Below, piece by piece: positions 6,588 through 30,856 of a stretch of DNA of 64,000 nt. Both the position numbers and the translations under genes were made by a program. The notes below the pieces were generated by a model. That model was given only the letters and a program-made list of their open reading frames with translations, was not told where the DNA came from and made no database searches. How positions within the stretch are numbered: position 1 is the stretch's first letter; each line of letters opens with the position of its first letter. Origin of the DNA: a virus; the IMG/VR virus record IMGVR_UViG_3300025865_000006, positions 53,071 to 117,070 of that record. One strand, given 5' to 3'.

Positions 6588-6893
6588 TCAATCTACCACA
6601 ACAATTCTGCCAATTCGAATCCAATGACGAGTCATATCGTTTGCTTCTAGACGCATCGCCTCATAGTATTCTTTTTGAATCTCCCTCGGCACATCAGGCT
6701 CATCAATCATTCCAGCGATTTTTGCGCCAATATACAATTCGTGATAATGCTCTTTTTCAGTCTCATTGGTAATTCGGGCACTTTCAGCATCATAGAAGTA
6801 GCCGCAATTATTACAGCGCCAAAGACCGTCCTCGATCATTGTAGCGCCCCATTCACCTTCGCATTTTACACAGCTAACGGTATATCTATCCAT
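6588..6893 (-). CDS. Zinc-ribbon protein, 101 aa
   Basis: Two CxxC knuckles (CVKC, CNNC) within the first 35 residues form a zinc ribbon, followed by a helical acidic region and a short IRIGRIVVV strand. I chose ATG at 6893 because GGAAAGG precedes it; an earlier in-frame ATG at 6932 would lie in the promoter's 5' leader. A promoter sits 60 bp upstream. Function unknown. Confidence 0.6.
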   Translation of the reverse strand: MDRYTVSCVKCEGEWGATMIEDGLWRCNNCGYFYDAESARITNETEKEHYHELYIGAKIAGMIDEPDVPREIQKEYYEAMRLEANDMTRHWIRIGRIVVVD

Positions 6894-15759: not shown

Positions 15760-15764
15760 TAGAA

Positions 15765-15905
15765 TACGGCTAGGATACTCGGCTAGTACCCTGAAAGGCG
15801 TACGAGGGGTTACGAAAATGTCTAGCGAGTCGGTCAAGGTATAAACCGACATGATTCTACAATTGTTTGAAGTCGCACAATTGTAGAAAAGAGTCCTGAT
15901 CTAAG
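15765..15905 (+). ncRNA. Structured RNA element with hairpins
   Basis: 145 nt without an ORF. It holds the small motif CTAGGATACT ... GTTACGAAAATG-TCTAGCG (15768-15827), repeated at 16667-16719, then hairpin GTCGGT/ACCGAC (15829-15850) and a 12-bp stem TTCTACAATTGT/ACAATTGTAGAA (15855-15888). It could be the 5' part of the RNA locus or a separate small RNA. Confidence 0.55.
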
Positions 15906-15924: not shown

Positions 15925-16056
15925 ATGGAATATGTTGCAATGAAATGCGGCTTCTGCAAAGAGGAACATTATTACGGTAAGCTTGTCGAAAAAGGCAAGG
16001 AAGACGTAAAGTGCCCAAATTGCAATAAACTTCTTGTGGTGGTACCTAAGAAGTAG
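15925..16056 (+). CDS. 43-aa zinc-ribbon (Com-like) protein
   Basis: ATG at 15925, with a strong AAAGGAGGTG 8 nt upstream; TAG at 16056. CGFC and CPNC 22 residues apart form a classic zinc ribbon, like phage Com-type translational regulators. It lies between two structured RNA segments, which makes an RNA-binding role attractive, but that is inference. Confidence 0.6.
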   Translation: MEYVAMKCGFCKEEHYYGKLVEKGKEDVKCPNCNKLLVVVPKK

Positions 16057-17170
16057 TAATTATGATGGCGAAGGTTAGGTTGGCTAGACCTAATCTATTC
16101 GATGCCGTAAGGATAGGTTCGAGTCCTATCACTACCTTTAGGTAGGTCGGGTATGAGTAGCGGAATAGCCCTTCGAATAGGAAGCTAGAGCGCGAGTCCG
16201 AAATAAATATCTGATAAGATATTTATTAGGTTCTTGACTCTAGGCCAGATATTCCTTCCAGAACGGGAGGCTCTAGGCCAACGCAATTCAGTTGGTGGGT
16301 GAAAACTTTTCGGGTGCCGAGAATAAAAGCCGAAAGCCGGATAAGTAACCGGCAAATCGTTTCCTAGTTTAGAATAAACTAGGGCGGGAAATATACATTG
16401 CAGTCCCGGTATGTCAACCTGCAAACCGGATAATGTAACCGGTACACAAATCTATCTGGTCGAAGGCTAGGGGGATTGTCCTAGCTTATCAGTGTTCAAA
16501 TCCCGCTGATAAGAAGTTAGAGTTAGAAAAGACCAATCGCTGGATACGGAGAAAGCCGTGTACAATCCGTCTGCGTTAGCGGACCTGTTGTAAAACAGAG
16601 TTAGAAATAGGATGGTTCGTGACTCTAGGGCCAGAAATTTTTTACAGGCTGGATAACAGGTTTTACGTCTAGGATACTGCTCTCAATAGTCAGAGAGTAA
16701 AGTTATGCAATGCCTAGCGTGCTGGTAAACTGCAAACGCATTGAGCGTGGTACATGTGCAGACGGATATAAACCAGACCAATTGGATCGGGTGAGCATGT
16801 TTTGGTACGCTCAGGTGACTGTAAATCACCCCTCTTAGAGTTTGTAGGTTCAAATCCTATCCGGTCCACCAAAGATTTAGGTATTCGATGTAGATAATTA
16901 TCGTTGGACGGAACAATAATGGCTCTCCGTGGTAGCACCACAGCGGGAAATGTGGCCGCTAAATTAGAAATAGTTTGGCGCGGTATAGCCTAGATAATTA
17001 TCTACATGGAGTATCTAACTCCGTAAAGAGTACGATAGGGACGCCGATATTACCACTTGTCGTCAAGAGACTCGTGAGTCCTACCAATTGAAGTAGGTCG
17101 ATGTGGAATCCCCTCACAATGCGTATACTGCTCGATAAGATGTGATATCGAGCATCCGATTAGTTGGAGA
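16057..17170 (+). ncRNA. Large structured noncoding RNA locus (GOLLD/ROOL-like candidate)
   Basis: 1.1 kb without a credible ORF but dense in RNA structure: a tRNA-like module (helix CTATTCG/CGAATAG 16095-16180 enclosing T-arm 16113-16129 and capped stem CTACC-TTTA-GGTAG 16132-16145), a second T-loop hairpin CTTATCAG/CTGATAAG near 16490, twin CCGGATAA(T)GTAACCGG hairpins (16337, 16426), twin GACTCTAGG motifs (16236, 16621), a 13-bp long-range helix (16890-16902 with 16993-17005) and a final 8-bp hairpin (17130-17153). tRNA-Tyr is embedded. Size, ornateness and tRNA company fit the GOLLD/ROOL type of giant phage RNAs. Whether it is one transcript or several is unknown. Confidence 0.6.
16784..16871 (+). 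tRNA. tRNA-Tyr (GTA)
   Basis: Type II cloverleaf: acceptor GGATCGG/CCGGTCC, D-stem AGC/GCT, anticodon stem GGTGA/TCACC with loop CTGTAAA (GTA), long variable arm, T-loop TTCAAAT, discriminator A, encoded CCA. It lies inside the structured RNA locus. Confidence 0.92.
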
Positions 17171-21757: not shown

Positions 21758-22183
21758 ATGACTGTAAGCATCGTACTTAGTGTTGATCGTAGTCTATTGC
21801 TTGATATCATTGTTGATGGCATGGATTATGTTTGTAGGGGGTATTGGGGGCAAATCGAAGATTATAAATGGGAGTGGTGGTATACTGCTGATAAGGTTGG
21901 CGATCCAACAGGTACAATCAATCCTGATATCACCGACGATACTGTACTTTGTCGCATTCGAGATGATGATGACGGCATGGCAGAAGAGGAAGATCGGCCA
22001 TTTGTTGATATTACTCTCGCTAAATTGGAACAAGCATTTGGCTGGACACTACAGTATTTCCCGCATACCGTTGTTCCTTTTGAGACTAATAGTAGTGGCA
22101 CAATCATTGATTGTAATCAAGATGCTGAAACTCAGGATATCATGATCCAGTACATTTGCTTTGGAGAGGTTATCTACGGATGA
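21758..22183 (+). CDS. Hypothetical protein, 141 aa
   Basis: Tryptophan- and aspartate-rich alpha/beta protein. No motif recognised. Its stop overlaps the RNA ligase ATG. Confidence 0.5.
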   Translation: MTVSIVLSVDRSLLLDIIVDGMDYVCRGYWGQIEDYKWEWWYTADKVGDPTGTINPDITDDTVLCRIRDDDDGMAEEEDRPFVDITLAKLEQAFGWTLQYFPHTVVPFETNSSGTIIDCNQDAETQDIMIQYICFGEVIYG

Positions 22184-22881
22184 AAGAATACGCACATATT
22201 GATTCTGTATATAAGCGGGATCAAAAGGGTAAGTTTATCCTTGGTGAATACTCTACTCCTGAATTTAAATATCTAAAAGATAATCCTTGGGCTTGGACTG
22301 AGAAGATTGATGGTACAAATATTCGTATCATGTGGGATGGTGCAGATGTACGTTATGGTGGAAAGACTGATAACGCACAACTTCCATCTAAGCTTGTCAA
22401 TTGGTTGAATACCCAAACTATTAGAGAAAACTATGATGGGGACGATACCGAAGGGGATCTGGCCTTCAATCCTTACACTTTCAATAGATTGTTTGGGGGC
22501 GAAGGAAATGTCTGTCTTTATGGAGAAGGCTATGGTGCTGGTATTCAGAAGGGTGGTGGACTCTATTCCCCCGAGCAGAAGTTTATTCTCTTTGATGTAA
22601 AGGTTGGTCCTTGGTGGCTTTCTCGATTCGGAATTGAAGATGTTGCAAAGAAACTCAATCTCGATGTTGTGCCAATTGTTGGAACACAAACTCTTGAAGA
22701 GATGATTGCATTTGTTGGTGATTATCGAACTCCCGAGGGAGAGCGCCACCTAACAGAAATTCCCCAATCTGCAATTGGTACCGCTAAGATGGAGGGATAT
22801 GTTGGCCAACCAGTAATTCCCTTGTTTGATCGTAGAGGACGACGTATCATTACAAAAGTCAAATACAAGGATTTCGCATGA
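22180..22881 (+). CDS. RNA ligase (Rnl2/DraRnl-like)
   Basis: 233 residues from ATG 22180. Nucleotidyltransferase motifs in order: motif I EKIDGTNIR with adenylated K42, LYGEGYG (113-119), motif IIIa FILFDV (135-140), motif IV MEGYVG (204-209), motif V TKVKYKDF (225-232). It seals RNA 3'-OH/5'-P nicks using ATP through a covalent lysyl-AMP. There is no obvious C-terminal domain, so it is a compact ligase. With tRNAs and Ro60 in the same genome, repair of cleaved phage or host RNA is a reasonable role. Confidence 0.85.
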   Translation: MKEYAHIDSVYKRDQKGKFILGEYSTPEFKYLKDNPWAWTEKIDGTNIRIMWDGADVRYGGKTDNAQLPSKLVNWLNTQTIRENYDGDDTEGDLAFNPYTFNRLFGGEGNVCLYGEGYGAGIQKGGGLYSPEQKFILFDVKVGPWWLSRFGIEDVAKKLNLDVVPIVGTQTLEEMIAFVGDYRTPEGERHLTEIPQSAIGTAKMEGYVGQPVIPLFDRRGRRIITKVKYKDFA

Positions 22882-30311: not shown

Positions 30312-30856
30312 GGCCCAAAAAACAAGTGCCAAACGGCCTAAAGAAAGGGGCCGTTTGGCACTATACAATGGACACTACTTTCAAGAAGGTAGTGTATGGT
30401 GGATGGTATCCTGTACACTATTGTAGTGTCCATTGTATAGTGCCGTTTGTCACAAAAGAATAATGACCTTTGGCACTACACAAAGAGGTAGAAAGTTACG
30501 CTACAGGCCCGATAGGGTCTGGATGGGCGGGCAAGTATGCCTCTTTGTATAGTGCCAAAGGTCACAAAAGAATGTGACCAATGGCCCTTGACAAAGGCAA
30601 ATAGAATATCCGTTCTGTTTGCGTTTTTAGCCAATAGACTAAGGCTGTTCTACTGTTCTGTTATATGCATATGCACATATATGCATATGCGCATATACGC
30701 ATATGTACTAGGCACCATACACATGCACGTATGCGCATGTATGCATACATGATTTTTCAGGGCGTATACTCCTGGGGAGTATCAAACGCTTGACACTGTA
30801 TGCTATGCTCGGCCTATCGCACGAAAGCGAGCGGCAGAGCATAGAGGGTATGCACC
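30312..30856. repeat. Cluster of long inverted repeats
   Basis: 545 bp without a credible gene. Stem I: 30325-30338 with 30349-30362 (14 bp, exact). Stem II: 30357-30378 with 30423-30444 (22 bp, exact). Stem III: 30464-30488 with 30540-30564 (25 bp, one mismatch). All arms share AGTGCC(AAA); stems I and II use the same GGCACT and exclude each other. Then follow a TTAGCCAATAGA copy (30627) and a run of GCATATGC-type palindromes (30664-30755). Confidence 0.75.

What the first reader, a model, noticed from the sequence alone, without database searches (positions are those of the whole stretch)
16057..17170. Large ornate noncoding RNA locus with embedded tRNA-Tyr
1.1 kb of an otherwise gene-dense genome has no ORF but shows long-range helices, twin hairpin motifs, two T-arm-like hairpins and a capped acceptor-like stem around a perfect tRNA-Tyr. 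Giant phage RNAs (GOLLD, ROOL) are known to sit beside or around tRNAs; this looks like a member or a new class.
Basis: partly seen in the sequence, partly recalled or inferred. Interest (0 to 1): 0.8.

Follow-up and report, generated by a model that had tools for sequence, protein, structure and literature searches.

The report
New modular structured RNA in phages
A phage from an environmental metagenome carries a 1.1-kb stretch that makes no protein but encodes a large folded RNA built from repeated modules, with a tRNA gene lodged inside it; the RNA matches no described family, a shorter version sits at the same place in a second phage, and one module stands alone in a third.

Summary
The locus is a real structured noncoding RNA and not a member of any Rfam 15 family. 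GOLLD, ROOL and all other models give nothing, even permissively; only a weak tRNA match appears. A 556-nt homologue lies at the same place in a related phage (G014), directly after the same 43-aa zinc-ribbon gene, with the same modules in the same order (P1, g, c, long arm, b). Compensatory changes support three helices: b terminal hairpin, 5 of 6 pairs with double changes in 4 copies; b inner helix, 4 of 5; g helix, 4 of 6. A model of module b found an untrained fourth copy, standing alone in a third phage (G008). The window's version is larger because modules are duplicated (c, g) and a tRNA-Tyr-like gene is inserted. Most likely it is a trans-acting RNA scaffold that works like GOLLD/ROOL, possibly with the adjacent Com-like zinc-ribbon protein. 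The function is inferred; nothing shows transcription or assembly. Known from two full copies and one stand-alone module.

The parts
15764..15856 (+).
   Evidence: R1 match G000:68834-68926, 91 bits (in the training set); 88% over 41 nt to the G014 copy
15925..16056 (+). 43-aa zinc-ribbon ORF (CxxC..CxxC) directly upstream of the RNA
   Evidence: Homologue in the same place in G014, none in G007/G008; weak hit to phrog_6417 translational regulator, E 0.018
16066..16184 (+). Domain P1: 40-nt block identical in G014, hairpin TTAGGT(TGGCTAG)ACCTAA, then CTATTCGA paired with TCGAATAG
   Evidence: 98% over 45 nt and 92% over 24 nt to G014
16112..16130 (+). T-arm-like hairpin inside P1 (window only)
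   Evidence: Sequence; repeats the T arm of the embedded tRNA, 88%
16180..16255 (+). Module g, first copy (CTAGAG..CTCTAG closing helix, GGCCAGAT)
   Evidence: 4 of 6 helix pairs changed on both sides against G014, flanks conserved
16336..16353 (+). Twin hairpin 1, GCCGGATAAGTAACCGGC
16425..16443 (+). Twin hairpin 2, ACCGGATAATGTAACCGGT
16485..16513 (+). T-arm-like hairpin 2, CTTATCAG..CTGATAAG
16511..16640 (+). Module g, second copy
   Evidence: Repeat families D1 and D4; pairs as g1
16663..16755 (+). Module c, second copy (CTAGGATAC..AATGCCTAGCG)
   Evidence: R1 match G000:69733-69825, 69.5 bits (in the training set)
16784..16871 (+). Embedded tRNA-Tyr-like gene (GTA) with encoded CCA and 12-nt D loop; absent from the G014 copy of the RNA
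   Evidence: 84% to the tRNA-Tyr of sister phage G009, 79% to this phage's other tRNA-Tyr; acceptor and anticodon stems stay paired
16874..17021 (+). Long arm: 29-nt pairing arms closing a 90-nt multi-hairpin loop
   Evidence: Score 24.6 against shuffle maximum 18.1; a weaker arm at the same place in G014 (L100:4405-4505)
17028..17160 (+). Module b, conserved 3' end: GAGTACG..CGTAT helix, variable inner helix, CAATGCGTAYACTG, terminal hairpin with GTGAT, CATCCGA
   Evidence: Two copies in G014, one alone in G008; compensatory changes

Best explanation
This is a new family of large, modular, structured phage RNA, encoded on the + strand directly after a small zinc-ribbon gene. Its core, shared by two phages, is P1 - g - c - long arm - b (about 560 nt in G014). 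In the window phage it has grown to about 1.1 kb by duplicating g and c and by taking in a tRNA-Tyr gene between c and the long arm, much as GOLLD RNAs carry tRNAs in a linker. Most likely it acts in trans as an RNA scaffold during infection, either alone as an RNA-only assembly like GOLLD/ROOL or bound by the adjacent Com-like zinc-ribbon protein; host RNase P would release the tRNA. SHOWN: the sequence features, synteny, conserved module order, compensatory changes, the stand-alone b copy. INFERRED: transcription as one RNA, protein binding, scaffolding, tRNA excision. I put about 0.85 on 'real structured RNA of a family not in Rfam' and about 0.35 on the scaffold mechanism.
For: Homologue at the same genomic position in G014 with modules in the same order. 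Compensatory changes: b terminal hairpin 24/24 cells paired, 5/6 pairs with double changes; g 18/18 and 4/6; b inner helix 4/5 pairs and outer helix kept; partners slid by 1-3 columns fall to 25-46%, 11-67% and 11-53% paired respectively. The b model R2 finds an untrained copy in G008, E 5e-4 for that genome and 0.0025 over 591 kb, with the GAGTACGCTA strand outside the model also present. The two-strand motif occurs at those places plus one permuted arrangement in 2.25 Mb of both-strand sequence, none in one shuffle. No Rfam family. The zinc-ribbon gene occurs only with the full RNA among near-complete relatives, and module c recurs in its leader in the window.
Against: Only two full-length copies are known; most module copies are paralogues, so the covariation rests on few independent events. 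The counts used hand-trimmed alignments: loops were shortened, one bulged C was dropped from W_b, one extra G from W_g2, and the seventh pair of the b hairpin was left out. Folding energy is not exceptional. No promoter or terminator above chance. Module b alone in G008 and module c in an mRNA leader suggest the modules can act separately. The Com resemblance is sub-threshold and no solved structure matches usefully.
Confidence: 0.55

Rival explanations
1. A run of separate small RNAs and leader elements (c as leader of the zinc-ribbon mRNA, b as a roughly 80-nt RNA or UTR element, a tRNA between them) that became neighbours, not one large RNA. Each would be a processing or translation-control element of the polycistronic transcript.
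For: b stands alone in G008; c sits upstream of the zinc-ribbon gene; RNase P cutting at the embedded tRNA would split the transcript; no strong terminator after b.
Against: The order P1-g-c-arm-b is the same in two phages whose neighbouring proteins are 37-80% identical, while the gene after b differs between them.
Confidence: 0.25
2. It is a divergent GOLLD or ROOL RNA that the Rfam models miss.
For: Phage setting, size, embedded tRNA, elaborate structure; GOLLD linkers sometimes hold tRNAs (PMC12286853).
Against: No hit to any Rfam family other than tRNA in the window locus at E up to 5, and only chance-level microRNA, Ms_IGR-7 and DUF805b hits in the G014 locus.
Confidence: 0.05
3. Cis-regulation: a Com-like zinc-ribbon protein binds module c in its own leader (autoregulation), and the downstream RNA is the long regulatory 3' region of that gene.
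For: Zinc-ribbon gene and RNA occur together and abut; weak similarity to phage translational regulators; module c in its leader in the window.
Against: No module c in the leader of the G014 zinc-ribbon gene; the 560-1100-nt size is large for a protein-binding site.
Confidence: 0.2
4. Decayed or small protein genes: the 5' block reads MAKVRLARPNLFDA in both phages.
For: In-frame reading of the block in W and L.
Against: Its codons are identical in both phages, whereas in four neighbouring genes 88 of 204 codons for unchanged residues differ (the statement on the block is my direct in-frame reading, since the script's comparison of that block was out of frame). The frame stops after 27 aa in the window; no useful relative in phages; compensatory changes elsewhere.
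Confidence: 0.05
5. A DNA element (origin, packaging or recombination site) with palindromes.
For: Inverted repeats, repeated blocks.
Against: G-U pairs are accepted, loops and single-stranded junctions are among the most conserved parts, and all modules lie on one strand.
Confidence: 0.05

Closest known systems
GOLLD RNA (Rfam)
   Same: Phage-encoded, over 800 nt, extensive structure, conserved 3' part and variable 5' part, tRNAs sometimes carried in a linker (PMC12286853)
   Different: No sequence or structure-model match; the shared core here spans the whole G014 RNA, with a conserved 5' block as well as the 3' module b; the G014 form is 556 nt and tRNA-free
ROOL RNA (Rfam)
   Same: Phage setting, about 0.6 kb, near tRNA genes, elaborate structure (PMC12286853)
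   Different: No model match; modular duplications; a stand-alone module in G008
YrlA (RF02553) with Ro60
   Same: tRNA-like features; this phage encodes a Ro60 protein and a YrlA-like RNA elsewhere
   Different: This locus has no YrlA match; Ro60 is also present in relatives that lack this RNA
Mu Com and its target in mom mRNA (from memory)
   Same: Small zinc-ribbon protein next to a structured RNA
   Different: Profile similarity below significance; no mom-like gene seen nearby

Membership tests
GOLLD | Match to the Rfam covariance model | tested here: not met
   No hit at E up to 5 in the window or G014 locus
GOLLD | Conserved 3' half, variable 5' half often carrying tRNAs | tested here: inconclusive
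   3' module b is conserved and a tRNA is embedded in one copy, but the 5' block is conserved too
GOLLD | Closed 14-mer RNA nanocage | not testable with these tools
   Needs cryo-EM
ROOL | Match to the Rfam covariance model | tested here: not met
ROOL | Homo-octameric nanocage | not testable with these tools
   Needs cryo-EM
large structured phage ncRNA (general kind) | Hundreds of nt without a conserved ORF, and helices kept by compensatory change | tested here: met
large structured phage ncRNA (general kind) | Transcribed as one stable RNA | not testable with these tools
   No transcript data
tRNA (embedded) | Recognised by tRNA models | tested here: not met
   Missed by ARAGORN and under Rfam thresholds; a sister copy with an 11-nt D loop is recognised
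YrlA | Match to RF02553 | tested here: not met

The most novel reading that the evidence does not exclude
A new class of giant phage RNA assembled from exchangeable modules: the same module (b) serves as the 3' domain of a 0.56-1.1-kb scaffold in two phages and as an independent small RNA in a third, and the scaffold takes in tRNA genes and pairs with a dedicated zinc-ribbon protein.
Probability: 0.35. Interest if true: 0.75.

Novelty: new variant of a known kind. Interest (0 to 1): 0.6.

Why it matters
Very few large structured phage RNAs are known, and the function of GOLLD and ROOL is open. An unrelated family that also carries a tRNA, has a minimal 560-nt form, a stand-alone module and a linked candidate protein gives a tractable way to ask what such RNAs do and how they grow.

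Tried and rejected
Rfam at gathering and permissive thresholds: no family except tRNA and chance hits. The motif GGTTCNTGACTCTAGG in IMG/VR gave 34 hits: most read, on the other strand, as the start of one coding sequence and the rest look scattered; rejected as chance. 17-mer of P1 in IMG/VR: only G014 plus three unrelated hits. Patterns of b and c in IMG/VR: only G014. b pattern in GTDB genomes: one Mesobacillus hit without the stem. Phage and plasmid collections: no match. Neighbour-protein relatives L109-L114: no RNA. Link to Ro60: rejected, as relatives lacking the RNA have Ro60. Folding energy as proof: rejected after the genome-wide tile comparison. Long-range helix 16565/16756: at shuffle level.

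Full report
Where it lies. The window is bases 53071-117070 of a 117,070-base IMG/VR virus record. The record encodes a terminase, portal, DNA polymerase, ribonucleotide reductase, ThyX, Ro60 and 29 ARAGORN tRNAs, so it is a tailed phage. No near relative is in the GenBank phage collection: the terminase finds one record at 23% identity. IMG/VR gave 30 terminase loci, of which the largest contigs, G007 (120 kb), G008 (120 kb) and G014 (106 kb), served as comparison.

Check of the observation. 16057-17170 carries no ORF of 60 aa or more on the + strand and only two unconvincing ones on the - strand. Repeats and hairpins are as described. Of the long-range helices, only the 29-nt arms 16874-16902/16993-17021 exceed shuffled sequence (24.6 against at most 18.1). 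The fold z of -5.8 impresses less in context: tiles elsewhere in the same window reach the same excess stability. The tRNA-Tyr at 16784-16871 is missed by ARAGORN and scores below threshold in Rfam, probably because of its 12-nt D loop, but sister phages have tRNA-Tyr genes of the same type and its stems stay paired through sequence changes, so I regard it as a real tRNA, probably of a lineage different from the phage's second tRNA-Tyr (record 6643-6728).

A homologue at the same place. Searching the relatives with the DNA found matches in G014 at 94172-94216 (98%), 94248-94271 and 94674-94723; the reverse search agrees. The genes before it are syntenic (80%, 37% and 67% identical proteins), the last being a 43-aa zinc ribbon that ends about 10 nt before the RNA in both. 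The gene after the RNA differs. The G014 locus (L100:4173-4728, 556 nt) holds the modules P1, g, c, an arm, and b twice, in the order in which the window has them; the window has in addition a second g, an extra c upstream of the zinc-ribbon gene, about 400 nt of mid part and the tRNA. G007 and G008 lack both the full RNA and the zinc-ribbon gene.

Evidence that it is RNA. Between flanks GGAAG and GCCAGA, helix g reads CUAGAG/CUCUAG in the window and CCGAAA/UUUCGG in G014: 4 of 6 pairs changed on both sides, all cells paired. In module b the inner helix is changed on both sides at 4 of 5 pairs among three copies and the terminal hairpin at 5 of 6 pairs among four copies, 24 of 24 cells paired, against 25-46% when partners are slid. 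These alignments were trimmed by hand to the stems; a bulged C in W_b, an extra G in W_g2 and a seventh hairpin pair were left out. The 5' block of P1 could be read as MAKVRLARPNLFDA, but its codons are identical in the two phages, while in four neighbouring genes 88 of 204 codons for unchanged residues differ. That script compared the P1 block out of frame, so the statement about the block is my direct reading.

A third phage. A covariance model of module b (R2) found G008:88744-88801, which was not in its training set, at E 5e-4 and 0.0025 over 591 kb. The copy has the GAGTACGCTA strand too, which the model does not contain, and stands alone among small genes. With it added (R3) no further convincing copy appeared in 33 records. 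In G013 a related two-strand motif occurs with the strands in the opposite order, in a noncoding gap of the tRNA array; this may be a permuted relative or chance.

What it does. Nothing here shows function. The best reading is a trans-acting scaffold RNA: large, modular, structured, with a tRNA as passenger. GOLLD and ROOL, the nearest things in kind, form RNA-only cages, have no known function, and GOLLD linkers sometimes hold tRNAs (PMC12286853). A second reading uses the zinc-ribbon gene, which abuts the RNA, is absent from relatives without it, and weakly resembles Com-like translational regulators (E 0.018). Module c in its leader would then be an autoregulatory site, but G014 lacks that leader copy. 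A third reading is that the modules are separate small RNAs or UTR elements; the lone b in G008 supports it, the conserved order speaks against it.

Membership. It is not a GOLLD or ROOL by the test that defines them in Rfam, though whether it assembles like them was not testable. It is not YrlA. It meets the sequence criteria for a large structured phage RNA; transcription is untested.

Limits. Two full-length copies, paralogous modules, no transcript data, no access to the metagenome collection. Presence and absence in relatives rests on contigs that may be incomplete.

Noticed in passing
window 48758-50341 and 50944-51058: A Ro60/TROVE gene (Pfam E 2.8e-34) with a YrlA-like RNA about 600 nt downstream (RF02553, 30.9 bits, E 4.5e-4, full length but under the gathering score). 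Ro60 is kept at 57-78% identity in G001, G007, G008 and G014: a phage Ro60-Y RNA pair.
   Followed up: partly
window 28692, 28784, 29774 and L130:394-2869: Repeated GCCAATGGAG motif in AT-rich intergenic stretches before small genes, in two related phages; possibly a phage promoter or regulatory element.
   Followed up: no
window 30320-30570: Large inverted repeats (GTGCCAAACGGCC..GGCCGTTTGGCAC; TATACAATGGACACTAC..GTAGTGTCCATTGTATA; GACCTTTGGCACTA..TAGTGCCAAAGGTC) after a small basic ORF, among the most stably folding tiles of the window.
   Followed up: no
window 30660-30750: Dense palindromic CATATGCGCATATA repeat tract.
   Followed up: no
L070:6916-7128 (G013): Structured noncoding gap between tRNA genes carrying the two strands of module b (TGCGTATA and GAGTACGCTA) in the opposite order, as if circularly permuted.
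   Followed up: partly
window 22156-22881: RNA ligase (PF09414), possibly part of an RNA-repair theme with Ro60 and the many tRNAs.
   Followed up: no
G000:6643-6728: Second tRNA-Tyr of the record, of a different lineage from the embedded one (79% identity).
   Followed up: partly
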